Shown: in pieces, positions 1 to 10,501 of the stretch
Position numbering within the stretch: the first letter of the stretch is position 1
Layout of the letters: every line of letters begins with the position of its first letter
Origin: an uncultured Eubacteriales bacterium
Lineage (GTDB): Bacteria; Bacillota; Clostridia; Christensenellales; Aristaeellaceae
Assembly (NCBI GenBank): GCA_900318145.1
Contig: ONJM01000022.1
Location: 1 to 35,666 of the forward strand
Direction of reading: 5' to 3'
DNA length: 35,666 nucleotides
Notes under the pieces: model-generated
What the model was told of the DNA's origin: nothing
Seen by the model: only the letters and a program-made list of their open reading frames with translations
Database searches by the model: none
Position numbers and translations under genes: made by a program

Positions 1-260
1 CCATCCATTATGGCAGCCTCCTCGACATCCTTCGGAAAGTTTCTGAAAAAATTCATCATCAGTATCACATTATATACGGGGAGACTGCCACTTAGGATCA
101 GGCCAGCCATGTTGTCCATCATGCCATAATTCTTCATGCACATGTACCAGGGAATGGTTCCGCCATTGAACAGCATGCAAAATACCACAATCCACATCGT
201 AACGTTTCTACCATGAAACTCTCGTTGACTGCGGGATAAAGGATAAGCTATTTGCGTGCC
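1..260 (-). pseudogene. 5'-truncated carbohydrate ABC transporter permease (LplC/YtcP-like), continues off the left edge
   Basis: The minus strand is open from 260 to the window edge. It encodes a typical membrane permease segment: an AYPLSR stretch, a hydrophobic helix (WIVVFCMLFNGG), IPWYM, and the cytoplasmic coupling loop PKDVEEAAIMDG, which is the EAA motif that contacts the ATPase in binding-protein-dependent sugar importers. In this family about 100 residues precede the AYPLSR region, but here a TAA stop at 261-263 lies only four codons upstream and no start codon is present. The 5' part is therefore missing and this is a remnant. The break lies immediately next to the stop codon of the AlbA_2 gene, so the permease was probably cut when the accessory block arrived or rearranged. 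The 3' end is outside the window, so its integrity is unknown. Confidence 0.8.
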
Positions 261-267
261 TTATGTT

Positions 268-1755
268 TTACAAAATTCGATAGTGTCGTGAACGTCTGTC
301 ACCTTCTGCTGCAATCTTTTCCTCATCTACCAATTCGGCCAGCAGAGCTCTTGTTCTTGACAAACTTAGTCCAAGTTGTTCTGATAATTCTGCAGTACTG
401 CAAATACGCTTTTTCTGAATAAAATCCATAATTGTTTGTTTGTGTCGAACTGTTTTTGCCAGTTTCCCATTATCACCTGTTTTTATCGCTTTTTTTTGTC
501 GCCTGTTTTTATCGCCTGTTTTTATCGCTTGTTTTTCGAATGAAAGCGTCAGAATCGTGCGGTCGGGATTATACTGTTCTTCCACTTCCGGAGCTTTCCA
601 GCCTTGCGATTCCCATACTGCAAAGATATCAGGCACTCCGCTGCCGGCACGTTCTCCGATGCCGATCATATTGAACATCTTCATCAGTGCTTTGTTCCGC
701 GGATCCGAAATACCGCCCTTGAGCATCTGATCTTTTCCGGTTCTGATGTAGCCAGGATTTTCAATTGTGATGCTGCTTGCATCCTTCCGGATCACGACCC
801 CGCGGGGAACAAAAAAGTCTGTGTTAACCAGGCAATTTGCAAGCGCTTCCCGAAGGGCTTTGTGAACCGGTGTGTCGTCGATGCGTGTAATCCCTTCCAG
901 CTTGAACGGAATCTTCAGATCTTTTGCCAACTTGGAATTGACCCGGAAGAAGAAATCAAAGAGGTTTCCGGTCCAGTCCCCGGAACTGGACTGAAGTCTG
1001 TCTGTCCAGCGGATGGTTGGATCAAGCATTTCCCTGTAATCCAGAAAGTATTCCGGATACTCATATAGGATGCGGTATTCCTCACCAAACATCAGCAGTC
1101 CTGCGGCAGTCGGATGCAGCTTCCCATCTCCCTTGGCCCGTTTTACAGCTCCGATGCGTTCAAGGTATGTTTCATCCGTCAGACCTTCCCAGACATGATC
1201 ATTCCGATACGCAGCATGGCGATTGCGGTATGCGTGAACAGTTTCTGCGTTGAGATCGGAGATATCCATATCCTCCAGTACTTTCATGTCAGCGGTTTCC
1301 TCAGTCTGATCCCGCAGCATGGCTTTGACTTCTGCTTTCGTGCAGTGATAGTCTCCCTCACCGTTCCTGCGGAACGTTCCGTTCATCATATCATCGTTTA
1401 CGAAGACCGGCTTATCCTCCCGCTGTGCTCTGGGAACATGTATAGCAAGAATATCTTTGCCATTCAGCTGCAGAATCCTCACATCATCATCTGAAAGCAA
1501 ATTAATGCTGACTTTTTTTCGATTGTTGACTGTGTTCCAAAAATCCTTTTTAAGTTTAACAGCATCCGAAATACCTGTGGCAGAAAAGCTTCCATCTGAA
1601 TTCTCCGTAACGCCAAGCAAGATCATTCCACCATAGCAGTTTGCCATGGCTGAATAGGTATCCCACAGGTTTTGAGGAAGACTATCCTTCGCCTTCTTTG
1701 CTTCAAGCCGGTTGTCCTCCCGGTACTCATCGAATCTGTTAACATCGAATTCCAT
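268..1755 (-). CDS. AlbA_2 (Schlafen-like) / GHKL-type ATP-binding / winged-helix protein
   Basis: A 495-residue protein of the COG2865 type. Residues about 14-135 form the AlbA_2 (Schlafen AlbA) domain, with LEAKKA and the glycine-rich NCYGGMILLGV. Residues about 300-390 look like a C-terminal HATPase_c_4 module (EALANCLVNTDF, ENPGYIRTG, GERAGSGVPDI). Residues about 430-495 form a winged helix (STAELSEQLGLSLSRTRALL). The start at 1755 is chosen because AAGGAAGAGG lies just upstream and because a consensus promoter (-10 at 1838-1843) falls inside the longer open frame that reaches 1974. Proteins of this family are annotated as transcriptional regulators and also occur in defence islands; the function here is not known. 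A basic linker at about residues 405-427 is encoded by a 13-bp tandem repeat. The gene may be cargo of the mobile element or an older flanking insertion. Confidence 0.88.
   Translation of the reverse strand: MEFDVNRFDEYREDNRLEAKKAKDSLPQNLWDTYSAMANCYGGMILLGVTENSDGSFSATGISDAVKLKKDFWNTVNNRKKVSINLLSDDDVRILQLNGKDILAIHVPRAQREDKPVFVNDDMMNGTFRRNGEGDYHCTKAEVKAMLRDQTEETADMKVLEDMDISDLNAETVHAYRNRHAAYRNDHVWEGLTDETYLERIGAVKRAKGDGKLHPTAAGLLMFGEEYRILYEYPEYFLDYREMLDPTIRWTDRLQSSSGDWTGNLFDFFFRVNSKLAKDLKIPFKLEGITRIDDTPVHKALREALANCLVNTDFFVPRGVVIRKDASSITIENPGYIRTGKDQMLKGGISDPRNKALMKMFNMIGIGERAGSGVPDIFAVWESQGWKAPEVEEQYNPDRTILTLSFEKQAIKTGDKNRRQKKAIKTGDNGKLAKTVRHKQTIMDFIQKKRICSTAELSEQLGLSLSRTRALLAELVDEEKIAAEGDRRSRHYRIL
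474..538. repeat. 13-bp tandem repeat inside the AlbA_2 gene
   Basis: CGCCTGTTTTTAT occurs at 500-512 and 513-525, a variant CGCTTGTTTTTCG at 526-538, and CACCTGTTTTTAT at 474-486. The unit length is not a multiple of three, so gain or loss of one unit would shift the frame just before the winged-helix domain. Confidence 0.85.
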
Positions 1756-1807
1756 GCGTTCCTCTTCCTTCTTCGTCCGAAATACGTAAGGAGCTGGATG
1801 CAAATCG

Positions 1808-1866
1808 TGTGAAATGCGCATTTCACAAACAACATGAATTATAGCTGAAAACCCCTTTTCTTTCAA
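1808..1866 (-). promoter_or_regulatory. Promoter and palindromic operator of the AlbA_2 gene
   Basis: On the minus strand TTGAAA (1861-1866) is followed by a 17-bp spacer and TATAAT (1838-1843). Just downstream of the expected transcription start is a perfect 20-bp palindrome, TGTGAAATGC/GCATTTCACA, at 1808-1827. Its position fits an operator, possibly for autoregulation by the winged-helix protein it precedes; that link is inference. Confidence 0.75.
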
Positions 1867-1945
1867 CGCATATGCTTTGTTATGAGTGAATGCTGACGGT
1901 GAAAAATACTTTATCACGATGCCTTTTTTCGAAAAACGGTACACG

Positions 1946-1986
1946 ATGGAACAGAATGAAACAAAATGGAACACATGCGGCTATTG
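1946..1986. repeat. Iteron block 1: three 10-bp repeats plus common tail
   Basis: ATGGAACAGA, ATGAAACAAA and ATGGAACACA follow each other in perfect 10-bp register (1946-1975) and run into TGCGGCTATTG (1976-1986). The same tail closes block 2 at 2391-2401. An AAAAACGGTAC at 1932-1942 resembles the reverse complement of the 11-bp repeats beside the integrase (10 of 11 positions). Confidence 0.7.
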
Positions 1987-2275
1987 TAAATCACATGCCG
2001 ACATGATAATGTTACGATGGATATATTGAAAGCTGTCATCCTTCAGGACTCCCGCATATAGCCGGGTGAATTCTGGCAATCAGTAGTGAAGGATTCAGCG
2101 GATGGCATATGATAACGTATCGCTGAAAATACAGGCAATAGTACTGCCACAGAGAAGCCACTGCCCGCCAAGCGCAAAATTTGATACTCAATGCTAAACG
2201 ATAAGACAAAATGTTACACGATAGCATATTGATGATACAAGCAGGGGTATGATATTGTATGATTGTCAGATCAAT
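1987..2275. other. AT-rich intergenic stretch with short repeats, no gene recognised
   Basis: No open frame here has a credible start and ribosome site. It contains an ATGCTA...TAGCAT inverted repeat (about 2190-2227), two related ATGTTAC(AC)GAT words, and one copy of the module GTATGATATTGT...GTCAGA (2247-2270). The composition resembles a non-coding regulatory or replication region of the mobile element. Confidence 0.5.
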
Positions 2276-2307
2276 AAAAAGTCCGCCTGATGTGGCGGGC
2301 TTTTATT
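2276..2307. terminator. Orphan bidirectional terminator
   Basis: GTCCGCC (2281-2287) pairs with GGCGGGC (2294-2300) around a 6-nt loop, with A5 on the left and T4ATT on the right. No gene ends here on either strand, so it either insulates the parM region or ends a short untranslated transcript. Confidence 0.75.
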
Positions 2308-2350
2308 CATCTCTCTGTCAACGGCCTTTTCCTCTGATTTTTTACAAATT

Positions 2351-2401
2351 TCCGGAAGGATTCGGAAAGAAACGGAAGCATTCGGAAACATGCGGCTATT
2401 G
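2351..2401. repeat. Iteron block 2: four 10-bp repeats plus common tail
   Basis: TCCGGAAGGA, TTCGGAAAGA, AACGGAAGCA and TTCGGAAACA lie in strict 10-bp register (2351-2390) and run into TGCGGCTATTG (2391-2401), the tail of block 1. The general shape, NNCGGAARNA repeated upstream of a parM-like gene, is like the direct repeats of parC centromeres or replication iterons; which it is cannot be told from sequence. Confidence 0.75.
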
Positions 2402-2435
2402 AGAAGAAAGCCAAAGTATGATATTGTTATACTCG

Positions 2436-2515
2436 TCAGAAAAGAAAAATCTGAAAAAAGAGACGGAATGAGAAAGAAAGAGACGAAAAGAGAAAAAAAG
2501 AGAAAGAAATAGATA
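2436..2515. other. Strand-asymmetric purine tract
   Basis: About 80 bases of the + strand are almost all A and G, built of GAAAGA/GAGACG-like words, with only a few pyrimidines. It lies between iteron block 2 and the parM promoter. It may be an easily melted or triplex-prone element of an origin or centromere; no gene is present. Confidence 0.6.
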
Positions 2516-2762
2516 TTGAATTACCGATCAAAAGCTGATATCGTTATTCTTGAAAAATTAAGAGTTGCGTCTGCGAAAGACCACCGACAGCAATGCCGGT
2601 GTTTTTTTATGCCCATTTTGAAGGAGGTGGTGCCTATGAGTGTGCACAGATCAAACTAATACAACTAGGAAACCGGCGACATAACGGAAGCCGGTGCAAG
2701 AAAGACAGAAGAAGTCTCTGCAAGGAGCCTTCAGAAAGCAAAAAGTTAGGAGGATTATTACT
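2516..2762 (+). promoter_or_regulatory. parM-like promoter and structured leader
   Basis: TTGAAT (2516-2521), a 17-bp spacer and TATCGT (2539-2544) form a plausible promoter. The leader of about 210 nt then contains a terminator-like hairpin (CACCG 2582-2586, CGGTG 2597-2601, T7), a seven-codon ORF with a very strong ribosome site, and a second hairpin, ACCGGC/GCCGGT (2672-2677 with 2690-2695). The parM ribosome site AGGAGG is at 2748-2753. The arrangement resembles an attenuator. Confidence 0.55.
2636..2659 (+). CDS. Possible leader peptide MSVHRSN
   Basis: ATG at 2636 is preceded by AAGGAGGTGG at ideal distance and opens a seven-codon frame ending in TAA. It lies between a terminator-like hairpin and a second hairpin in the parM leader. 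The strong ribosome site is the only evidence for translation; the role as a regulatory uORF is inference. Confidence 0.4.
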   Translation: MSVHRSN

Positions 2763-3689
2763 TTGAGTACAACCATCATCGCCGTAGATCATGGCTACGG
2801 CAATATTAAAACGGTCCATGAGATTTTTCCATCGGGGGTTACAGCCTGTAAGGATGAACCGACACTTTCCCAGGATAAGCTTAACTGGGCAGGCAGGTGG
2901 TATATCATCGGAGAAGGACATAAAGAGTTTACGGATGATAAAGCCCAGGACGAAGACTATCTGCTGCTGACGATGGTCGCTATGGCCATGGAACTGAAGC
3001 TTCAGGGTAAAACGGAAGCAGAAGTCCATCTGGCAGTCGGATTGCCCCTTACGTGGGTCGGTGAACAGAAGGAAAAGTTCCGCACTTATTTCCTTCGTAT
3101 CCCTGTGTTGGACTACAACTATAACGGTGTTGACTACCATGTGGAGCTGACCGGCGTAAGCGTTTATCCGCAGGGCTTCGCTTTCGCTGTCACACACATC
3201 CGAGATTTCACTGGCATTAATATGCTCTGCGATATCGGAAACGGCACTATGAGCAGCATGTTCATCAATGACTGCCGTCCTGTCAGCGGAAAGATGTTCA
3301 TGGATAAACTGGGAACGTATCAATGTGTTCTCACAATTCAGGAAGCACTGATGAAGACCTGTCATCTTTCCGTGGAAGAGAGCATCATTGAACAGGCTCT
3401 TCGCGGTGAAGCCACTCATCTCAGCAGTCGTGTACAGGAGGGAATCAACGGTGCTGCTGCAGAATATGCGGAAACCATCATGCGGCGTCTCCGGGAGCAT
3501 GGCTACAATCCGGAATTGGTGAAGCTGCACCTGATGGGTGGCGGTGCGTGCATTCTCCGGAACTTCGGAAAAATCAATGCCGATAATGTATATTTCACGG
3601 AAGACATTCACGCAACCGCCAAGGGCTATCAGTTCCTGGCAGAGCGAGAACTGGGGATAGGCGGTGCCTCTATTGAAAAAGGAGAATGA
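2763..3689 (+). CDS. ParM/StbA-like actin-family segregation ATPase
   Basis: A 308-residue actin-like protein. The phosphate-1 loop is near the N-terminus (AVDHGYGNIKT, residues 7-17), the phosphate-2 motif DIGNGT begins at about 157, and the adenosine motif LMGGGACIL lies at about 257-265. ParM-type proteins polymerise with ATP and push DNA copies apart through a ParR adaptor bound to parC. The start is TTG at 2763, nine bases after AGGAGG; an ATG further upstream at 2694 has no ribosome site and would add a basic tail unlike the family. The gene overlaps the next by 26 bases, as in parMR operons. Finding it on an integrating element suggests that the excised circle is partitioned like a plasmid, or that it stabilises the element. 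Confidence 0.85.
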   Translation: MSTTIIAVDHGYGNIKTVHEIFPSGVTACKDEPTLSQDKLNWAGRWYIIGEGHKEFTDDKAQDEDYLLLTMVAMAMELKLQGKTEAEVHLAVGLPLTWVGEQKEKFRTYFLRIPVLDYNYNGVDYHVELTGVSVYPQGFAFAVTHIRDFTGINMLCDIGNGTMSSMFINDCRPVSGKMFMDKLGTYQCVLTIQEALMKTCHLSVEESIIEQALRGEATHLSSRVQEGINGAAAEYAETIMRRLREHGYNPELVKLHLMGGGACILRNFGKINADNVYFTEDIHATAKGYQFLAERELGIGGASIEKGE

Positions 3690-4002
3690 ATACTTTTTCA
3701 ATGTAAGGCTGAACCTGAAGAAGGCTGATTATCGGAAGGCTTACAACCGGCTGATGAATCGTCACAGCCAATCAATTTCTGACTGTGTTGTGGATGCATT
3801 GTGTTTCATGGATGAATCGCATCCGCAGGTGCTTCAGTCAGAGCAGCTTCAGGCGGCAGTCCGAAAGGAATTGAGGGATTTCTTTCAGGACTGGAAACCG
3901 CCTGAAACCATGACTGCAGCAGTAAGCGGAGTCGCAGGGAAGGACTCCGCACCAACAGAAGATGATCTGGCTGCGGCCATGGACTTTATGGATTCACTGT
4001 AA
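3664..4002 (+). CDS. Small protein, likely ParR-like centromere-binding adaptor
   Basis: A 112-residue protein translated from GTG at 3664 (TTG at 3673 is an alternative), overlapping the end of the ParM-like gene. The N-terminal half (FNVRLNLKKADYRKAYNRLMNR) resembles the ribbon-helix entry of small plasmid DNA-binding proteins. The C-terminal half is variable and acidic and ends in an AAAMDFMDSL tail, which in ParR proteins would contact the actin filament. No family signature is strong enough to name it on its own; the call rests on size, order and overlap with parM. A terminator hairpin follows directly at 4003-4030. Confidence 0.6.
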   Translation: MPLLKKENEYFFNVRLNLKKADYRKAYNRLMNRHSQSISDCVVDALCFMDESHPQVLQSEQLQAAVRKELRDFFQDWKPPETMTAAVSGVAGKDSAPTEDDLAAAMDFMDSL

Positions 4003-4066
4003 GTGATATCGGAATGGTATCACTTTTTTTCATGCTTATGAAGAAGTGATACCAAATCGATATCAC
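4003..4066. terminator. parMR terminator and mirrored second hairpin
   Basis: GTGATATC (4003-4010) pairs with GGTATCAC (4016-4023) and is followed by T7 (4024-4030), a good terminator for the parM/parR-like pair. A second hairpin, GTGATACC (4046-4053) with GATATCAC (4059-4066), is a near-perfect inverted copy of the first. The two 21-bp units form a larger inverted repeat with a 22-bp centre, which may also be a protein-binding site. Confidence 0.75.
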
Positions 4067-4069
4067 ATA

Positions 4070-4248
4070 CCGGGAGTCCAGAGGGAAACCCTCTGGGTCG
4101 GGTGCAGGGTGACAACGCCTGCCGGGAGTGCAGAGGGCAGCGCCCCTGCCCGGAGTCCAGAGGTGGAACCTCTGGCCCAGTCATGTGTTGGGCCCGCAGG
4201 GTCCGACACATAGTACTGGGTATTACCTGTCGTTCCAACAGGCTTTTT
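4070..4248. other. Candidate origin of transfer (oriT): hairpin cluster upstream of the relaxase
   Basis: Three related direct repeats begin hairpins: GGGAGTCCAGAGGG (4072), GGGAGTGCAGAGGG (4124) and CGGAGTCCAGAGGT (4151). The stems are CCAGAGGG/CCCTCTGG (4078-4096), an imperfect GCAGAGGGC/GCCCCTGC (4130-4149) and CCAGAGGT/ACCTCTGG (4157-4175). A 13-bp stem, ATGTGTTGGGCCC with GGGTCCGACACAT (4183-4211), follows. CCTGT/ACAGG plus T5 (4226-4248) is terminator-like. A GC-rich hairpin cluster directly upstream of a MobV relaxase fits oriT; the nick site is not identified. Confidence 0.6.
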
Positions 4249-4309
4249 AGCGCCTCAGCTCCTCCCCGCCACCCCATAAATCCTCAAACAGAAAGGAGGT
4301 GAAATCTTT

Positions 4310-5599
4310 ATGGGATCTCAAAGGGTAACCCGCCACAGCGGTCGCTCCGGAAAAGGCGGTGCTTACAGTTCCAAACACAATGACCGGCAATTCGATGCTG
4401 AAAACGCGGAACACATTAACAAAGAGCGCATGAAGCAGAATGTCTATTGGGATTATCTGAACGGAGAACGAACTCATGCCGAACAACAGAATGGAGATTA
4501 CCCCTCCTTCCAGGCTGTCGAAAAGCAGTTCTATGCGGAACGGTACGGAGATTATCTTTCCGGCCAGGCTGAACGAAACCGAAAGTCAGGTCATTCCAAT
4601 CGGAATCGGACTGTAGACGATCTGCTTCATGATAAGCGCATCTGCCCCGAAGAAACAATCTTTCAAATAGGAAAAAAAGGAAGTGAAACACCGCCAGAAG
4701 TGCTGTTAGAAGTGATTCATGATTATCATGGCCGGTTCAATCAATTGTTTGGAGAACATGTTCATATTATCGACTGGGCCTTGCATCTGGATGAAACAAC
4801 ACCCCATGTTCATGAACGACATGTCTTCGATATGACAAACAACCATGGAGAAATCGAGCCAAAGCAGGAAAAAACGCTGGAAGTAATGGAAATTCTGCTT
4901 CCGAAGCCCAGTGAGAAGCCCGGCAAGTACAACAATCGGAAAATGGCTTTCGACGCGATTTGCAGGAATCTGTTCATTGATGTCTGTAAGCAGCACGATC
5001 TTTCGATCGAAGAAGAACCAATCTACGGCGGTCAGGCTTATCGTGAGAAAAATGATTATATCATTGAATCACAGCAGGCAGAGATTGCTGAACAGCAGCA
5101 GGTTCTTAGCAGCCAGCTTGCACAACAGGCGCAGAATAATCAGCTTCTGACTCAGCAGCAGGCGCAGATCGAAAGAAATGCCGATCTGCTGGAAGATGAA
5201 GAAAAGTTCATTGCCAGTATTGCTGCGCAGGCTCATGACGAAGCGGTACACATGACTGCAGAAAAAGTCATCCGGGAAGTCCAGAACGAAACAATTAACG
5301 CACTCTCTGTATTCAAAGAAATGAATACTTCTCCGGAAAAGAAACTGAAGCCGGCCATTCGGGAAACAGTCATTGCTTACCTTGATGGCGCGATCTCTAC
5401 GATTCGGAATCGCACTGAAAAGCTGATTAGCCGGATCAGGAAAAAGCTGTTCAGTCCTGAGCTCCGTACGGAGAATACCAAAAAACTTGAAAAGAAGCTT
5501 GCTCCGTCCATTCATGAGCAGCTCCGGGCTTTCCGGCAGAAACAACTGGAAATGCCATCCCGGCAAAGGAAGATTCATCGGGATGATCCATCCAGGTAA
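4310..5599 (+). CDS. MobV-family relaxase (plasmid mobilization/recombination protein)
   Basis: A 429-residue protein. The N-terminal region has the SKHNDR...AEHINKER pattern of MobV/Pre proteins. The metal-binding signature HLDETTPHVH lies at residues 159-168, where the histidines hold the divalent cation used to nick oriT and attach covalently to the 5' end. Residues about 235-300 are Q/A/E-rich and probably a coiled coil; the C-terminus is basic, which suits DNA contact. The ATG at 4310 has a perfect AAGGAGGTG site. No type IV secretion genes are present, so transfer would depend on a helper conjugative system. The hairpin cluster immediately upstream is the expected substrate. A terminator follows at 5624-5652. 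The catalytic tyrosine or histidine near the N-terminus was not assigned. Confidence 0.85.
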   Translation: MGSQRVTRHSGRSGKGGAYSSKHNDRQFDAENAEHINKERMKQNVYWDYLNGERTHAEQQNGDYPSFQAVEKQFYAERYGDYLSGQAERNRKSGHSNRNRTVDDLLHDKRICPEETIFQIGKKGSETPPEVLLEVIHDYHGRFNQLFGEHVHIIDWALHLDETTPHVHERHVFDMTNNHGEIEPKQEKTLEVMEILLPKPSEKPGKYNNRKMAFDAICRNLFIDVCKQHDLSIEEEPIYGGQAYREKNDYIIESQQAEIAEQQQVLSSQLAQQAQNNQLLTQQQAQIERNADLLEDEEKFIASIAAQAHDEAVHMTAEKVIREVQNETINALSVFKEMNTSPEKKLKPAIRETVIAYLDGAISTIRNRTEKLISRIRKKLFSPELRTENTKKLEKKLAPSIHEQLRAFRQKQLEMPSRQRKIHRDDPSR

Positions 5600-5623
5600 C
5601 CTATGAAAATTGAATATTTTTTT

Positions 5624-5652
5624 CTTCGGTCATCCGCGACCGGAGTTTTTTA
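5624..5652 (+). terminator. Terminator after the relaxase gene
   Basis: CTTCGGTC (5624-5631) pairs with GACCGGAG (5638-5645, one G-T pair) and is followed by T6. The remaining gap to 5804 holds a GGAACC...GGTTCC inverted repeat and no recognisable gene. Confidence 0.8.
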
Positions 5653-5804
5653 AGCAGAATGTATTCCTACATTTCTGAAAAGCGGGGAACCTGATGAATT
5701 TATTGTGATGAAAGGTTCCACAAGAATTCGTACTCAACTGGAGCCAGCAGATTGTTCTCCCGGCTTTTTTCTCGACTGTTATCATTTTAAGGAGGAAATA
5801 TTCG

Positions 5805-6428
5805 GTGAACCCTTTCCCTATTGTAAAGGCTGCGGTTACTGTCAAAGATGCCGCTGTATTTTATGGAATGAAAGTCGGACGGAGCAACATGATGATCTGT
5901 CCTTTCCACGATGATCATCATCCGTCCCTGAAACTTTATCCGGATCATTTTCATTGCTTCGGCTGTCATGCATCCGGAGATGTAATCACTTTTGTCGGAA
6001 GACTGTTCAATCTTACCCCGTATGAAGCTGCCAGGAAGATCATGGCAGATTTCCACATCGACCCCACCGCTCCTTCTTCGGCGGCTGCTCTCCCCATGGG
6101 GGAGCAGCTGCGTGAAGCGGAGCTCAAATGTCAGGGAACGCGGTGTGTCCGTGCCCTGGTACGTTTCGAAAACCTGCTGAAGAAGGAACAGGAACAGTAC
6201 GCTCCTGCCACCATGGACGAACCCTGGAATGATCGGTTTGCCCGAGCCTGCAATGCTTTGCCGCAGATCAGCCAGTATCTGGATGATCTGTTTGACGCGG
6301 ACATAACCGTTCGACAGGAAACTGCCTATGATCTGATCAGCAGCGGAGAAATTGAGCGGATTGAAAAGATCCTCGCTCAGGAAAGGAAGGAAAAGTCTCA
6401 TGGAGAAGACCCCTGCAGAGCGGCCTGA
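5805..6428 (+). CDS. CHC2 zinc-finger (DnaG-type primase N-domain) protein
   Basis: A 207-residue protein starting at GTG 5805 after AAGGAGGAAA. Residues about 25-90 are the CHC2 zinc-binding domain of primases, with ligands C32, H35, C51 and C54 in CPFH and CFGC, followed by GDVITF. In DnaG this domain recognises the template and is fused to a TOPRIM catalytic domain; here no TOPRIM part is present. The remaining C-terminal half is helical, without a recognised motif. Stand-alone CHC2 proteins are common next to P4-type helicases on mobile elements, where both probably start replication of the excised circle. The 3' end overlaps the start of the helicase gene by 29 bases, indicating translational coupling. 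Confidence 0.88.
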   Translation: MNPFPIVKAAVTVKDAAVFYGMKVGRSNMMICPFHDDHHPSLKLYPDHFHCFGCHASGDVITFVGRLFNLTPYEAARKIMADFHIDPTAPSSAAALPMGEQLREAELKCQGTRCVRALVRFENLLKKEQEQYAPATMDEPWNDRFARACNALPQISQYLDDLFDADITVRQETAYDLISSGEIERIEKILAQERKEKSHGEDPCRAA

Positions 6429-7785
6429 ATGGTGGCCGGACTGGTATGACGGAAAGAACATTGACGAAACAATGTTTTGCGGGTCTTTCATTCAGAATCA
6501 TCCGCTTGTTTATTGTGAAGAAGCCTTTTTCACCCGAGAAGGAGTTTTATATGATCACTCTGTTCTGAAAAAGATGATCTTCGCTACCATCCATCCTTTC
6601 GTGCATACCAATGTATCCAAAAAGATTACCAACCTGGTGGAACTGATGAAAATCACGGCGTATACCAGCAGCCTGCCTCCTCAGGATGACAGGATTTATC
6701 TGGCTAATGGAACGCTGTTGCTGAACGGGAGCTTCTATCCGCAGAAAAACGAGATCGTGCGTAGTCGTTTTCCGATCTGCTTTAACCCTAACGCAGCTCC
6801 ACCTGCGTGTTGGCTGCATTTTTTGAATGAACTGCTGTATCCGGAAGATATCCTGACACTTCAGGAATTCATTGGATACTGTCTGATTCCCAGTAATAAG
6901 GGACAGCGCATGATGGTTATCAAGGGAAACGGCGGTGAGGGAAAAAGCCAGATAGGTGCTGTTCTTCTGAAGCTGTTCGGTAACAGCAACGCCAAGGATG
7001 GCAGCGTAGGAAAGGTATCTGAAAACCGTTTTGCCCGGGCTGATCTGGAGCATATTCATCTGATGATCGACGATGATATGCGGATGGAAGCCCTGAAACA
7101 GACCAACTATGTCAAATCCCTTGTGACCGCGCAGGGCAAGGTGGACCTTGAACGGAAAGGAAAACAAAGCTATCAGGGCTACATGTACGCGCGGTTGCTC
7201 GCTTTCTCCAACGGTGATCTTCAGTCATTGTATGACCGGAGTGATGGTTTTTATCGCCGTCAGTTGATTCTCACTACGAAGGAAAAGGCACCGAACCGTA
7301 CAGATGATCCAAATCTGGCAGCCAAGATGTGCCAGGAACTTGAAGGCATCTTTCTCTGGGCCTTTCAGGGGTTGCAGCGCCTGATCGCCAACAGCTTTCG
7401 TTTCACGGAAAGCGAACGGGCCAAAGCCAACCGGAACGTCGTCAGGCAGGATGCCAACAATGTGATTTCCTTTATGGAATCCACCGGATACTTCTACTTT
7501 GATCCGAAGGCTTCCATCAGTTCGCTCGAACTGTATCAGGTATATCTTGTCTGGTGTCAGGAAAACGCTTGTACACCCCTTAAACAGCGGAGTTTCAGCG
7601 ATTATCTGATTACGAACCAGAAGAAATACGGACTTGAATATAACAACAACCAGAGCAACTCTGCTGGACGAAGAGTCAGAGGTTTTAAGGGGATCGCTGC
7701 TAATATTGACCTTTCTATAGCAATTGCCAAGCGCCTGCCGGATGCGAATCCCTTAGATAAGCTATTTAGGAGCTTTTCGCAGTAA
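6400..7785 (+). CDS. P4-family phage/plasmid primase-helicase (SF3 ATPase)
   Basis: A 461-residue protein. Walker A is GNGGEGKS at 176-183 and Walker B is HLMIDDDM at about 220-227, in the D5/P4-type superfamily 3 helicase layout. A D5_N-like region precedes them (FLNELLYPEDILTLQEFIGY), and a C-terminal winged-helix-like domain (YQVYLVWCQENACTPLKQRSF) follows. Such enzymes unwind the origin of phage or plasmid DNA. The ATG at 6400 is chosen because GGAAGGAAAAG precedes it and upstream codons belong to the overlapping CHC2 gene. The pair CHC2 plus P4 helicase is the likely replication module of this element. Confidence 0.88.
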   Translation: MEKTPAERPEWWPDWYDGKNIDETMFCGSFIQNHPLVYCEEAFFTREGVLYDHSVLKKMIFATIHPFVHTNVSKKITNLVELMKITAYTSSLPPQDDRIYLANGTLLLNGSFYPQKNEIVRSRFPICFNPNAAPPACWLHFLNELLYPEDILTLQEFIGYCLIPSNKGQRMMVIKGNGGEGKSQIGAVLLKLFGNSNAKDGSVGKVSENRFARADLEHIHLMIDDDMRMEALKQTNYVKSLVTAQGKVDLERKGKQSYQGYMYARLLAFSNGDLQSLYDRSDGFYRRQLILTTKEKAPNRTDDPNLAAKMCQELEGIFLWAFQGLQRLIANSFRFTESERAKANRNVVRQDANNVISFMESTGYFYFDPKASISSLELYQVYLVWCQENACTPLKQRSFSDYLITNQKKYGLEYNNNQSNSAGRRVRGFKGIAANIDLSIAIAKRLPDANPLDKLFRSFSQ

Positions 7786-7790
7786 ATTTA

Positions 7791-7846
7791 CGTACGTCCG
7801 TACAAGCGTACCATATAATGAACGTACACAGGTACGCACGTACGCG
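7791..7846. promoter_or_regulatory. GTAC operator array, 8-bp phasing, centred on TATAAT
   Basis: GTAC tetramers start at 7792, 7800, 7808, 7824, 7832 and 7840, each exactly 8 bp from the next except for one double step in the middle. The missing position is occupied by TATAAT (7814-7819), a perfect -10 box for the following xis gene. No consensus -35 lies 17 bp upstream. The array therefore looks like an operator or iteron cluster controlling or competing with the xis promoter. Confidence 0.75.
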
Positions 7847-7890
7847 GAAAAAGAAGCCATTCTCACTATACTATGAAAGGAGTGTTGCCT

Positions 7891-8178
7891 GTGTTTGATC
7901 AGGCTTTACCGCTGAAAACTCAGAAAAAAACCTGTTCTGATTCCCAAATAGAGACGGCTGTCAGGTTTCCTTCTGTGCCGCGGATGACCCTTACAGTTGA
8001 GGAAACAGCAGATGAACTGCATCTTTCCAGGCCTGTCGCCTACGAACTGGTTAAGGAACCGGATTTTCCCTCATTCAGGATCGGTAAACGAATTCTGGTG
8101 AACCGACTGGGGCTGCAACACTGGATTGATGAACAGAGCAGTCAACCGCTGTCTGAACCGGCGGATACCGCAGCATAA
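7891..8178 (+). CDS. Excisionase-like helix-turn-helix protein
   Basis: A 95-residue protein with one MerR/excisionase-type winged helix at about residues 33-82 (MTLTVEETADELHLSR...FPSFRIGKRILVNRLGLQHWI). The family binds att-site DNA, bends it and directs the integrase towards excision. The start is GTG at 7891, eight bases after AAAGGAG; an ATG at 7873 has no ribosome site. The first 30 residues are polar and lack a motif. The gene lies between the GTAC operator array and the integrase, the usual place for a recombination directionality factor. Binding as a general regulator is the alternative. Confidence 0.8.
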   Translation: MFDQALPLKTQKKTCSDSQIETAVRFPSVPRMTLTVEETADELHLSRPVAYELVKEPDFPSFRIGKRILVNRLGLQHWIDEQSSQPLSEPADTAA

Positions 8179-8211
8179 AGTCACACTGAAGAAATAAACC
8201 AAACGAACCAT

Positions 8212-8312
8212 TGCCCCACAAGGCTAAGACTGTTATCATAGACACAGGGGAAATCAAACACCCCTGTGAACCTTGATAACTGAATCAGATAGCTTTGTGG
8301 GGCATTTTTATT
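8212..8312 (+). promoter_or_regulatory. Nested three-stem hairpin between xis and int
   Basis: TGCCCCACAAGGCT (8212-8225) pairs with AGCTTTGTGGGGCA (8291-8304), GTTATCA (8232-8238) with TGATAAC (8274-8280), and CACAGGGG (8243-8250) with CCCCTGTG (8261-8268). The three stems stack coaxially. TTTTTATT (8305-8312) follows, then the integrase ribosome site GGAGG at 8314-8318. It is terminator-like and probably attenuates int expression. Confidence 0.8.
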
Positions 8313-8326
8313 GGAGGATAAAGAAA

Positions 8327-9505
8327 ATGTCTCGCAATCAGTTAGCTCAGCGAAGCGATGGACGCTTCAAGGTAAACTATAAAAACAAGCAGTTTTACGG
8401 AAAGAGTAAAAAAGAAGCACTCCGTAAACGCGATGAATATGTCGCATTGGAAAGAGCGGGAATCGACTACGATTGCTGCGACACGCCATTCACGGAATAC
8501 GGGCTGAGATGGCTCGAAACCTATCGTGTTGATTGCAGTTCCCGTCAACAGCAGCAGTATGCCGGTATGATCAGATATGCCGGTGAGAAGCTGAATAATA
8601 AGCCGATGCGGCGCATTACAGTGACAGATATTCAGGCTGTCACCAATACACTCTCTGTTTATTCCACTTCCTATGTCAACAAGTTTCTGACCACCATGAG
8701 GGGAATCTTCCGCACAGCTTTTGCAGAAGGCGCGATCCTGCGCAACCCGATGGACCTGGTCAAACGTCCAAAATGTAAAAAAACCGAAGGGCACCGGGCC
8801 CTCGAAGAGTGGGAACGCGATTTGATCTGTTCCACTTATCAGGAGCATGATTTCGGTCTTGTGGCGATGGTCATGCTTTTCACCGGCCTTCGCAGGGGCG
8901 AAGCAATCTTTATCAATGTTGATCGGGACGTGGACTTTGAACGGAATTTGATTACGGTAAGAGGCGCGGTAACTTTCACCAACGGAAATCAACCGGAGGA
9001 ATCAGAGGGAAAGACCGAGAACGCAAAGCGGACTATTCCCCTTGTAAAGCCTCTGGCAGATGCACTTCGGGGGCATCATGGACTTTTATGTACAAAAGAA
9101 GACGGTACACTTATGTCGCAGACCGCTTTCGAACGAAAATATGAGTCCTATATGGCATTCCTGGAAACCAGGATTAACGGATGTCCGAAACGCTGGTATG
9201 GCCGTACCAGAGCGCATAAAGCGCTTTTGGCCGCCGGACAGGAGCTTCCACTCTGGAAGGAAGTGACGATTCGTTGTCATGACTTTCGGGTTGACTTCTG
9301 TACCCGGTGTTATTACGCCGATATTCCCGTCGTAACCCTGCAGCACTGGATGGGGCATGCATCTCTGAAAATGATTCTGGAGATCTATACTAAGCTTTCC
9401 AAGGCTGCGGAGGAAAAAGACGCCACCAAGCTGGCTGCATTTATGGAGAAAGGGCTTGTTCCCCAAGTTCCCGAACAGGAGCAGTCTTCATTCAGGGCCA
9501 GCTAA
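8327..9505 (+). CDS. int: Tyrosine recombinase integrase of the element
   Basis: A 392-residue site-specific recombinase. An N-terminal arm-binding region (FKVNYKNKQFYGKSKKEALRKR) is followed by a SAM-like core-binding domain (about 55-150) and the catalytic domain. The catalytic residues are visible: R189 in TGLRRGEA, probably K234, H318 and R321 in CHDFR, H344 in HWMGH, and nucleophile Y354 in EIYTKL. The length and layout match Tn916/phage-type integrases of Bacillota. The ATG at 8327 follows TTGGAGGATAAAG. The gene points towards tRNA-Arg and ends about 230 bp from its 3' end, which makes that tRNA the likely attachment site. The nested hairpin upstream probably controls it. Confidence 0.93.
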   Translation: MSRNQLAQRSDGRFKVNYKNKQFYGKSKKEALRKRDEYVALERAGIDYDCCDTPFTEYGLRWLETYRVDCSSRQQQQYAGMIRYAGEKLNNKPMRRITVTDIQAVTNTLSVYSTSYVNKFLTTMRGIFRTAFAEGAILRNPMDLVKRPKCKKTEGHRALEEWERDLICSTYQEHDFGLVAMVMLFTGLRRGEAIFINVDRDVDFERNLITVRGAVTFTNGNQPEESEGKTENAKRTIPLVKPLADALRGHHGLLCTKEDGTLMSQTAFERKYESYMAFLETRINGCPKRWYGRTRAHKALLAAGQELPLWKEVTIRCHDFRVDFCTRCYYADIPVVTLQHWMGHASLKMILEIYTKLSKAAEEKDATKLAAFMEKGLVPQVPEQEQSSFRAS

Positions 9506-9557
9506 CCGTCAGATGCTCTCAGACCTTATATAAAGCCACATCCGGTCGTTTTTTCCT

Positions 9558-9611
9558 GAACCGTTTTTGAACCGTTTTTGAACTGTTTCGGTACGTAAAA
9601 ATGGGTAAAAA
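9558..9611. repeat. Putative integrase arm-type sites at the right end of the element
   Basis: GAACCGTTTTT occurs at 9558-9568 and 9569-9579, and a variant GAACTGTTTCG at 9580-9590, in perfect 11-bp tandem. Two GTAAAAA words (9595-9601, 9605-9611) follow; on the minus strand they read TTTTTACCCATTTTTAC. Such repeats flanking a crossover site are typical arm-binding sites of tyrosine integrases. Confidence 0.6.
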
Positions 9612-9709
9612 TACGTGATATTATGTCTCGGACATGTCGGATCTGGTTAACATAGGATTTGAATAGCATCAATGTGAAAAACGCTGGAAGCGTTGAAATA
9701 TAAAGGAAA

Positions 9710-9734
9710 AGGAGACTTCTTTCGAAGTCTCCTC
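9710..9734 (-). terminator. Terminator of the tRNA-Arg gene
   Basis: AGGAGACTTC and GAAGTCTCCT form a 10-bp stem with a 4-nt loop just beyond the tRNA 3' end. On the minus strand TTTTCCTTT follows. Confidence 0.8.
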
Positions 9735-9736
9735 TC

Positions 9737-9813
9737 TGGTGAGCCCGGCGGGATTCGAACCCACGACCTTTTGATTCGTAGTCAAACACTCTATCCAGCT
9801 GAGCTACGAGCCC
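9737..9813 (-). tRNA. tRNA-Arg (anticodon ACG)
   Basis: A 77-nt cloverleaf on the minus strand with encoded CCA. It has the acceptor GGGCTCG paired with CGGGCTC, the D-arm TAGCTCAGCTGGATAGAG, the anticodon loop CTACGAA and the T-loop TTCGAAT. Anticodon ACG, read as ICG after deamination, decodes CGU/CGC/CGA. The integrase gene lies next to its 3' end, which makes it the likely attB. Confidence 0.97.
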
Positions 9814-9838
9814 ACATGCTGTTCCTGACAGCCCAATT

Positions 9839-9867
9839 ATATTATCACAACCGATGAAACGTGTCAA
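9839..9867 (-). promoter_or_regulatory. Promoter of tRNA-Arg
   Basis: Minus strand TTGACA (9862-9867), 17-bp spacer, TAATAT (9839-9844). A separate TATAAT at 9894-9899 on the plus strand, without a good -35, probably serves mnmM. Confidence 0.8.
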
Positions 9868-9934
9868 ATCTTTTTTTCCTTTTCAGCAGCGGGTATAATT
9901 GCGGTGCGGAGAATGAACGAATCCGGAGGAATTT

Positions 9935-10501
9935 ATGGCTTATGAACTGAAATCTGCCCGCTTCCTTGCGCGGGAGGCACTTGAGCGGGCTGTAAAAGCC
10001 GGGGATGTCCTTGTGGACGCGACCATGGGGAACGGGCATGACACGCTGTTCCTGGCGGAACAGACGGGGGCAGAAGGGCATGTTTATGCTTTTGATATCC
10101 AGGAAGACGCTGTGGCTTCCACACGAAAGCTGCTGGAGGAGCACGGCATGTCGGACAGGGCCACGCTGCTGTGCCGAAGCCATGCGGAAATAGAGGAAAC
10201 CGTCCCTGGGCCGATTGACGCGGCAGTGTTCAATCTTGGATGGCTGCCGGGCGGGGATCACGGCATTACCACGCGGTGCGAATCCACGAAAAAGGCGGTA
10301 CAGGGCGCGCTGAAGCTGCTGCGCCGCGGGGGAATCGTTACAGTCTGCGCTTATCCAGGGCATCCGGAGGGGGAGCGGGAACGGGATATGCTGGCAGCGT
10401 TTTTTGCCGCATTGCCCAACAGAGAGTATAATGTGCTGCGGCAGACTTTTCCGAACGCGGGAGAAGGAGCTCCGGAGTGCTTTGTCATTCAGAAGCTCTG
10501 A
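9935..10501 (+). CDS. mnmM: MnmM (YtqB) tRNA wobble-uridine methyltransferase
   Basis: A 188-residue class I SAM-dependent methyltransferase of the rRNA_methylase/YtqB family. The SAM motif DATMGNGHDT is at residues 28-37, and the family hallmark NLGWLPGGDH is at 100-109. In Gram-positive bacteria the family member MnmM converts the nm5(s2)U to mnm5(s2)U at position 34 of certain tRNAs, replacing the MnmC methyl-transfer step. The length matches the family. The ATG at 9935 follows CCGGAGGAATTT at good distance. The gene is divergent from tRNA-Arg and about 40 bp upstream of a small acidic protein, probably in one transcript that ends at the hairpin at 10774-10800. Confidence 0.88.
   Translation: MAYELKSARFLAREALERAVKAGDVLVDATMGNGHDTLFLAEQTGAEGHVYAFDIQEDAVASTRKLLEEHGMSDRATLLCRSHAEIEETVPGPIDAAVFNLGWLPGGDHGITTRCESTKKAVQGALKLLRRGGIVTVCAYPGHPEGERERDMLAAFFAALPNREYNVLRQTFPNAGEGAPECFVIQKL

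What the first reader, a model, noticed from the sequence alone, without database searches (positions are those of the whole stretch)
7791..7846. Six GTAC sites at exact 8-bp phasing around a TATAAT box upstream of xis
Seen: GTAC at 7792, 7800, 7808, 7824, 7832 and 7840. The unit that should lie at 7816 is replaced by TATAAT at 7814-7819. An 8-bp repeat is unusual because it does not match one helical turn, so neighbouring sites rotate around the DNA. Inference: an oligomeric regulator, or the primase/helicase or Xis itself, binds here and silences or activates excision. No -35 box is present, which suggests activator dependence.
Basis: partly seen in the sequence, partly recalled or inferred. 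Interest (0 to 1): 0.78.

Follow-up and report, generated by a model that had tools for sequence, protein, structure and literature searches.

The report
Probable replication origin beside its helicase
The evenly spaced GTAC letters are most probably the landing pad of the element's own DNA-unwinding enzyme, that is, a replication origin lying right after that enzyme's gene, rather than a switch bound by the excision protein; the layout is known from other mobile DNA, but this family shows naturally how enzyme and landing pad change together.

Summary
In detail: six GTAC at 7792, 7800, 7808, 7824, 7832, 7840, with TATAAT at 7814-7819, far beyond chance.

The xis interpretation fails. The site starts 4 bp after the stop codon of a DUF5906 / primase_Cterm (TIGR01613) helicase and tracks that gene. 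Of 80 evaluable distinct regions at helicases about 60% or more identical, 70 have 8-bp-phased GTAC within -130..+170 of the stop, against 9 of 2855 control windows. Xis-int directly follows in 4 of 81 regions. Twelve loci found by int (nine with an xis match, 43-74%) lack it. Two are the same element (int 85%, xis 74%, relaxase 68%) with another helicase (VapE-type in L165) followed by other repeats (TGGTTGC/T every 12 bp).

The site is two inverted arms of three 8-bp units; TATAAT is their spacer, seen only in the window and one 99% copy. In other lineages the core is GTTC or GTCC while 8-bp spacing, inversion and position persist.

Best reading: iteron replication origin of a self-loading helicase, as reported for SCCmec Cch2 and SaPI Rep. 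Binding and replication are untested here.

The parts
7790..7812 (+). left arm: three 8-bp units with GTAC cores at 7792, 7800, 7808
   Evidence: inverted-arm architecture in relatives
7824..7845 (-). right arm: inverted copy, GTAC cores at 7824, 7832, 7840
7813..7823 (.). spacer between the arms, contains TATAAT 7814-7819; length and sequence vary among relatives
   Evidence: arm spacing 7-154 bp; TATAAT within -60..+70 of the stop only in window and L003 of 57 two-arm regions; between-arm AT 43% on average
7867..7872 (+). TATACT, the conserved TATA-like box 23 bp after the last GTAC of the right arm; candidate -10 of the xis-int transcript or unwinding region
   Evidence: TATA at +15..+35 in 43 of 58 distinct flanks, shuffles mean 6.4, max 15; no sigma-70 promoter predicted here
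6400..7785 (+). DUF5906 / primase_Cterm (P4-type) helicase, the probable initiator that binds the arms with its C-terminal domain
   Evidence: TIGR01613 123.9 bits, cut-off 108.7; Pox_D5 C-terminal match 21.1 bits, just under its cut-off 21.4
5805..6428 (+). CHC2 zinc-finger primase-like protein upstream of the helicase; present in most but not all relatives
   Evidence: match in 81 of 90 loci with at least 2.2 kb upstream of the helicase stop
7873..8178 (+). xis-like HTH_17 protein; neighbour, does not track the site
   Evidence: HTH_17 over cut-off; excisionase model TIGR01764 27.1 bits, under cut-off 28.8
8327..9505 (+). tyrosine integrase; neighbour

Best explanation
The site is the iteron part of the replication origin of an integrative mobilizable element. 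The DUF5906/primase_Cterm helicase encoded just upstream binds the 8-bp-spaced GTAC units through its C-terminal domain, assembling on the two inverted arms (by analogy as two oligomers facing each other), opens the DNA and lets the element copy itself when it is excised or transferred, with the neighbouring CHC2 protein helping to prime. Shown here: the repeats, the inverted arms, their linkage to the helicase gene and not to xis, int or relaxase, and the change of core sequence with helicase lineage at constant 8-bp spacing in several lineages. Inferred: binding by the helicase, origin firing, two oligomers, priming.
For: Position: at the helicase stop codon (left arm just inside the gene or just behind it, right arm behind it) in most relatives. 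70 of 80 evaluable distinct regions have 8-phased GTAC and 57 have two phased arms; controls 9 of 2855 windows. The exact 16-mer of the right arm occurs in 1 of 391 class genomes, and there right after a 62% identical helicase. Independence from neighbours: arms kept with a MobV-type relaxase motif downstream (24 FAKYKGPE, 26 RNDGIDRT), a MobA/MobL one (6) and xis-int (4). In 45 genomes of the genus the helicase is in 7 and the integrase in 10; both lie on one contig only in the window's genome and its copy, G522 has them on different contigs. Natural swap: L165/L166 keep int 85%, xis 74%, relaxase 68% but the helicase gene is exchanged (VapE-like in L165), and GTAC is replaced by TGGTTGC/T repeats 12 bp apart right after the new stop. 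Core change with 8-bp spacing and inversion: GTCC in L173/L174 (helicase 61/58% id), GTTC in L100 (49%), TAGGC in L115 (46%), GGTGTCTT in L086 (43%). Over 36 helicase clusters tandem repeats around and after the stop reach p<=0.05 in 16, against 0 of 37, 1 of 37 and 2 of 34 control stretches; lag 8 occurs in 18 of 36 against 5-6, lag 9 in 22 of 36 against 7-13. In eleven loci cores and first spacer are symmetric between arms (42/44, 40/44, 44/44), the second spacer is near chance (13/44). Precedent: Cch2 of SCCmec, a Primase_Cterm helicase, binds direct repeats just downstream of its own gene with its isolated C-terminal domain (PMC7581432, section 6 and passages).
Against: Ten of 80 regions lack 8-phased GTAC: L004, L005, L032, L046 keep the layout with mutated cores and L074 is cut short, but L042, L049, L061, L065, L073 (one lineage, helicase about 60% id) show no comparable repeat; that lineage also has no CHC2 match. 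In the per-cluster tandem test the window's own cluster is not significant (p 0.26) and the largest GTAC cluster (L016, 78 loci) scores p 0.98, the repeat being short and interrupted; in L015 and L127 the top repeat is not an iteron that I recognise. In L116 and L087 only one arm has 8-bp spacing, and L085 has 9-10 bp. The DNA between the arms is not AT-rich on average (43%, flanks 61-63%, 56 loci), unlike PICI origins. L011 and L012 have arms together with an xis match (55% and 40% over 58 residues). Many loci are relatives of one another, so counts overstate independent evidence.
Confidence: 0.82

Rival explanations
1. Mainly a regulatory site: a protein (the helicase itself or another element protein) binds the arms to switch a promoter whose -10 box is the conserved TATA-like box just 3' of the right arm, driving xis-int or the relaxase.
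For: TATA at +15..+35 from the last right-arm GTAC in 43 of 58 distinct flanks (shuffle mean 6.4, max 15), with most offsets 21-27; in the window no sigma-70 promoter with a -35 is predicted there; where the right arm lies 118 bp from the stop (L023) the best box is still 26 bp behind the arm.
Against: Site follows the helicase whatever gene is downstream; repeats recur after helicases of divergent families; an AT-rich unwinding region would look the same.
Confidence: 0.1
2. A hairpin in RNA or single-stranded DNA (3' end of the helicase mRNA, or a single-strand initiation site used after conjugative transfer).
For: Seven loci folded as single strands all fold better than shuffles, z -2.6 to -7.7.
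Against: The second spacer does not pair (13 of 44 symmetric, chance 11) while the 8-bp register of the cores is often kept (right-arm registers of L004 and L101 were set by hand); arms are 153-154 bp apart in L023, L075, L080; the left arm lies inside the coding region in the gut lineages; no Rfam match at E<=1; no terminator-like site at the arms.
Confidence: 0.04
3. Operator of Xis, the ParR-like or the AlbA_2 protein controlling excision.
For: In the window the site lies directly upstream of xis; L011 and L012 also have the arms followed by an xis match (55% and 40% over 58 residues) and an integrase.
Against: Twelve loci found through the integrase, nine with an xis match, have no 8-phased GTAC, including the sister element with xis 74% and int 85%; an xis match follows in 4 of 95 helicase loci; TATAAT is not conserved.
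Confidence: 0.02
4. Origin of transfer (oriT).
For: 52 of 81 regions have a Mob_Pre-type relaxase motif within 3.4 kb downstream (50 of them with GTAC) and 6 a MobA/MobL one (one example of each confirmed by Pfam); oriTs often hold inverted repeats (recalled).
Against: Same arms with two unrelated relaxase families and with xis-int; in the window the relaxase-like gene ends 2.2 kb upstream of the site and has its own repeat-rich upstream region.
Confidence: 0.02

Closest known systems
SCCmec Cch2 helicase and its direct repeats (PMC7581432; section 6 and passages seen)
   Same: Primase_Cterm-type helicase; short direct repeats immediately 3' of its own gene; C-terminal domain binds them there; a primase in the same operon.
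   Different: Cch2 iterons are AAGTG direct repeats within 23 bp and the nearby inverted repeats are dispensable for binding; here the core is GTAC/GTTC/GTCC, 8-bp spaced, in two inverted arms; the partner is a CHC2 protein, not CCPol-MP.
SaPI / PICI pri-rep-ori replicon (PMC6092414; passages, Replication section and first part of Discussion seen)
   Same: Origin immediately 3' of the initiator helicase gene, made of two sets of iterons.
   Different: PICI iteron sets flank an AT-rich region; here the DNA between arms is on average not AT-rich, the left arm can lie within the helicase gene, and most elements examined have a relaxase near the site.
Phage P4 alpha protein with ori/crr (recalled, and mentioned in PMC6092414)
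   Same: P4-family primase-helicase domain (TIGR01613) and cis repeats as initiation site.
   Different: P4 fuses primase and helicase; its iterons differ in sequence and length (recalled).
SV40 T-antigen / papillomavirus E1 origins (recalled; compared with SaPI Rep in a passage of PMC7581432)
   Same: Hexameric helicase-initiator recognising repeated short sites.
   Different: DNA-binding domain is N-terminal there; no sequence relationship tested.

Membership tests
Primase_Cterm (TIGR01613) self-loading helicase with downstream iterons (Cch2-like) | helicase of the P4-type primase C-terminal family | tested here: met
   123.9 bits against cut-off 108.7; DUF5906 over cut-off
Primase_Cterm (TIGR01613) self-loading helicase with downstream iterons (Cch2-like) | short repeats at the 3' end of the helicase gene, conserved among relatives | tested here: met
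   70 of 80 evaluable distinct regions; one lineage of five loci without
Primase_Cterm (TIGR01613) self-loading helicase with downstream iterons (Cch2-like) | C-terminal domain binds the repeats; repeats needed for unwinding | not testable with these tools
   no assay; structure prediction failed, then unavailable
SaPI/PICI replication origin | two iteron sets directly 3' of rep | tested here: met
   window: both arms behind the stop; 57 of 80 evaluable distinct regions with two 8-phased GTAC arms, though in many the left arm is inside the gene's end
SaPI/PICI replication origin | iteron sets flank an AT-rich region | tested here: not met
   mean AT 43% between arms, 63% and 61% in the flanks, 56 loci; the window's own spacer is 75% over 12 bp
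SaPI/PICI element | phage satellite with helper-phage induction | not testable with these tools
   the element has a relaxase-like gene and an actin-like protein; induction cannot be tested
Xis operator / excision promoter | site conserved with xis/int | tested here: not met
sigma-70 promoter at 7814-7819 | -35 and -10 hexamers with proper spacing, conserved | tested here: not met
   no promoter there; TATAAT only in window and L003
MobV oriT | site tied to one relaxase family | tested here: not met
   arms occur with Mob_Pre and MobA_MobL relaxases and with xis-int downstream
MobV oriT | nick site within it | not testable with these tools
   needs biochemistry

The most novel reading that the evidence does not exclude
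The site is a combined origin and promoter switch: helicase bound to the right arm covers the -35 region of a promoter whose -10 is the conserved TATA box 21-27 bp away, so that loading of the replication helicase turns the downstream mobility genes (xis-int, or the relaxase) on or off, tying copying of the element to its excision or transfer. The core series GTAC / GTTC / GTCC at fixed 8-bp spacing would then be a readable specificity code between helicase C-terminus and origin.
Probability: 0.22. Interest if true: 0.7.

Novelty: new member of a known kind. Interest (0 to 1): 0.45.

Why it matters
It assigns a function and a likely binding protein to a site otherwise read as an excision switch. 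PMC6092414 (2018) called the 'origin right behind its helicase' layout shared by no bacterial replicon other than PICIs; PMC7581432 (2020) extended it to SCCmec; here it appears in mobilizable elements of gut and rumen Clostridia. The natural series of cores (GTAC, GTTC, GTCC) at constant 8-bp spacing, and a sister element in which helicase and repeats were exchanged together, give ready-made material to learn how these helicases recognise their origins. It also gives a cheap annotation rule: look just behind, and inside the last codons of, DUF5906 helicase genes for the origin.

Tried and rejected
Rejected: Xis/ParR/AlbA_2 operator, sigma-70 promoter at TATAAT, oriT and RNA hairpin, for the reasons given under rivals. 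An early 'long form / short form' split was dropped when one search showed that the missing left arm lies inside the helicase coding region. A first hope that the arms flank an AT-rich melting region, as in PICIs, failed. I looked for element ends: no direct repeat of the tRNA-Arg end was found within window 1-10000, and the 99% copy L003 sits at the same tRNA, so attL stays unknown. Viral-contig scans with the R. albus helicase, the L087 helicase and the integrase gave no confirmed relatives; the one with the L085 helicase gave two. PDB search by sequence gave nothing at E<=1; Rfam nothing. Comparing C-terminal helices (RSFSD in many GTAC lineages, KTFVE in the GTCC pair L173/L174) is only suggestive, since L100 (GTTC) and L101 (GTAC) share KSFAN. 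Non-independence: L003, L151, L157 and L172 come from one contig by length; L058, L117 and L142 likewise; counts were deduplicated by identical region only. The xis-int label was set by hand for four loci (checked).

Full report
What was checked. Runs of this kind do not arise by chance: random windows gave at most 3 (300 first-order and 300 third-order Markov windows) or 4 (1 of 5000 random placements of 98 sites, the real number of GTAC) in phase, against 6 here, and the assembly of 3.24 Mb holds the triple-phased pattern only here.

Setting. The window carries an integrated element: actin-like protein (2694-3689), a small ParR-like protein (3664-4002; a name by position, no family hit), a relaxase-like protein with an HxDExxPHxH-type motif (4310-5599; no Pfam or NCBIfam hit), CHC2 primase-like protein (5805-6428), DUF5906/primase_Cterm helicase (6400-7785), an excisionase-like HTH_17 protein (7873-8178) and a tyrosine integrase (8327-9505), next to tRNA-Arg(acg) (9737-9813, minus strand). 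The GTAC block starts 4 bp after the helicase stop codon.

What it travels with. A scan of one genome each of 84,980 species with the helicase found 152 relatives, of which the best 80 were kept; 12 more loci came from viral contigs. With the window, L083 and L084 this made 95 loci, 81 distinct regions, 80 evaluable. 70 have GTAC pairs exactly 8 bp apart within -130..+170 of the helicase stop; 57 have two such arms; 300-bp windows elsewhere in the same loci show such a pair in 9 of 2855 cases. Among lags 5-24 bp, lag 8 is by far the commonest (70 loci; next 16 bp with 11); lag 4 (59 loci) comes largely from GTACGTACGTAC, which also contains lag 8. In the gut lineages the left arm, GTGTACGTACGTACCGG, lies inside the last codons of the helicase gene, where it spells CTYVP near the C-terminus, and the right arm, GTACGTATGTACGCAGC, follows 5-30 bp after the stop in most. 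The two arms read as the same half-site on opposite strands, about GCTGCGTACRTACGTACCGG. Arm spacing ranges from 7 to 154 bp, with clusters near 16, 42 and 54 bp. The exact 16-mer GTACGTATGTACGCAG occurs in 1 of 391 class genomes, right after a 62% identical helicase.

What it does not travel with. By the first motif recognised within 3.4 kb downstream, the 81 regions split into MobV-type relaxase FAKYKGPE (25, of which 24 with GTAC), RNDGIDRT-type (27, 26 with GTAC), MobA/MobL (6, all with GTAC), xis-int (4, all with GTAC: window, its copy L003, L011, L012; set by hand), other (9, 5 with GTAC) and under 1 kb of sequence (10, 6 with GTAC) (families confirmed by Pfam on one example each). An xis match at E<=1e-4 exists in these 4 of the 95 loci only. 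Conversely, loci found through the integrase show no 8-phased GTAC anywhere in the 3.4-11 kb read: L112, L113, L118, L119 and L165-L169, all nine with an xis match; L114, L170 and L171 (int only, 34-35%) also lack it. Only L172, the contig of the 99% copy, has it. None of the twelve gave a match to the window helicase. L118 and L119 integrases are only 25-28% identical, so the weight rests on L112, L113 and L165-L169 (xis 46-74%, int 52-85%). In 45 genomes of the genus the helicase is in 7 and the integrase in 10; the two occur together in three genomes, on one contig in two (the window and its copy).

A natural swap. L165 and L166 are the same kind of element as the window by int (85%), xis (74%) and relaxase (68%), but give no match to the window helicase; in its place L165 has an ORF with a VapE-like domain (PF05272, 214.9 bits; a DUF5906 match of 23.8 bits is under the cut-off, so a distant relationship remains; L166 was not scanned, its sequence upstream of xis is nearly identical). 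There the GTAC arms are gone; directly after the new stop stand three TGGTTGC/T copies 12 bp apart (4165, 4177, 4189), preceded by a TGATTGC in step, and followed by a 16-bp perfect inverted pair holding the same core. The repeats thus changed with the helicase while xis and int stayed.

Core changes, spacing stays. Helicases of the same genus at 58-61% identity (L173, L174) have GCGTCCATGCGTCCG ... CGGACGCAYGGACGC: core GTCC, 8-bp spacing, inverted, same place. L100 (49%) has GTTC three times at 8 bp and the inverted set; L101 (45%) GTAC; L115 (46%) TAGGC at 8 bp in both arms; L086 on R. albus plasmid pRUMAL02 (43%) GGTGTCTT at 8 bp in both arms. L116 (43%) and L087 (43%) have GTGCCTA-type units with 8-bp spacing in one arm only, and L085 (47%) departs with 9-10 bp. 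Over 37 helicase clusters (75% identity), 36 usable, tandem repeats in -60..+200 are significant (p<=0.05) in 16, against 0 of 37, 1 of 37 and 2 of 34 control stretches; lag 8 in 18 of 36 and lag 9 in 22 of 36 clusters against 5-6 and 7-13 in controls. The window's own cluster (p 0.26) and the largest GTAC cluster (p 0.98) are not significant in that per-cluster test; their evidence is the phased GTAC test above. In L015 and L127 the top repeat is not an iteron that I recognise.

DNA site or hairpin. Single strands of seven loci fold well, so a hairpin had to be considered. In eleven three-unit loci the two arms agree at the outer core (42/44), first spacer (40/44) and middle core (44/44) but not at the second spacer (13/44, chance 11); the third core agrees in 28/44, the losses being mainly in loci where it is shifted by one base or mutated (right-arm registers of L004 and L101 set by hand). 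Together with arms 153-154 bp apart in three loci and lineages with plain direct repeats, this favours double-stranded recognition.

The TATA question. A different box is conserved: TATA within 15-35 bp after the last GTAC of the right arm in 43 of 58 distinct flanks (shuffles 6.4 on average, 15 at most), mostly at 24-27 bp; in the window it is TATACT at 7867-7872. It may be a -10 box whose -35 region is occupied by the right arm, or an easily melted stretch. This is the most interesting open point.

Known systems. SCCmec Cch2, described there as a Primase_Cterm helicase, binds direct repeats right behind its gene with its C-terminal domain and needs them for unwinding (PMC7581432, section 6 and passages). 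SaPI/PICI origins lie 3' of rep and have two iteron sets around an AT-rich region (PMC6092414, passages, Replication section and first part of the Discussion). The present site shares place and repeat logic; it differs in the 8-bp inverted arms and in lacking an AT-rich middle on average. I therefore call it a new member of the kind 'iteron origin behind a self-loading helicase', not a PICI origin. Searches for the motif (GTACGTATGTAC: 0 papers), for DUF5906 with helicase (2 papers, listing only) and for integrative and mobilizable elements with iterons and primase (1 paper, listing only) showed no description of this site; the main text of the IME review PMC5704250 holds neither 'primase' nor 'origin of replication' (passages). 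Most subscription journals are not in that library.

Limits. One helicase lineage (L042, L049, L061, L065, L073) shows no comparable repeat and no CHC2 match. CHC2 was found in 81 of 90 loci with enough upstream sequence. Relatedness among loci inflates the counts.

Noticed in passing
window 7867-7872 and 43 of 58 related flanks: A TATA-like box is held mostly 21-27 bp after the right arm, while the -35 region is the arm itself; origin or promoter role open.
   Followed up: partly
gut-lineage loci among L016-L099, last codons of the helicase: The left origin arm lies inside the coding sequence and dictates the residues CTYVP near the C-terminus; arm-to-arm spacings of these loci are 31, 40-44 and 54-55 bp (close to 3, 4 and 5 helical turns), with three outliers at 153-154.
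   Followed up: no
window 4003-4310: Repeat-rich stretch upstream of the relaxase-like gene (three CCGGGAGTCCAGAGG-type copies), a candidate oriT.
   Followed up: no
window 268-1974 (minus): SLFN_AlbA_2 / HATPase_c_4 gene contains 13-bp tandem repeats (TTATCGCCTGTTT type) at 470-536, a period that is not a multiple of three.
   Followed up: no
window 4310-5599: Relaxase-like protein with an HxDExxPHxH-type motif has no Pfam or NCBIfam match, although it is 50% identical over 244 residues to a protein in L087 and 68-70% to ones in L004, L005 and L165.
   Followed up: no
L042, L049, L061, L065, L073: One DUF5906 lineage (helicase about 60% id) has no GTAC arms and no CHC2 match; a GTTACTYTTGACAARAGTAAC hairpin lies 154-242 bp after the stop in L049, L061, L065 and L073; L042 is too short to tell.
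   Followed up: no
window, whole: GTAC is twice as frequent as dinucleotide shuffles predict (98 against 46.8), but a third-order Markov model gives the same number (98.6).
   Followed up: yes
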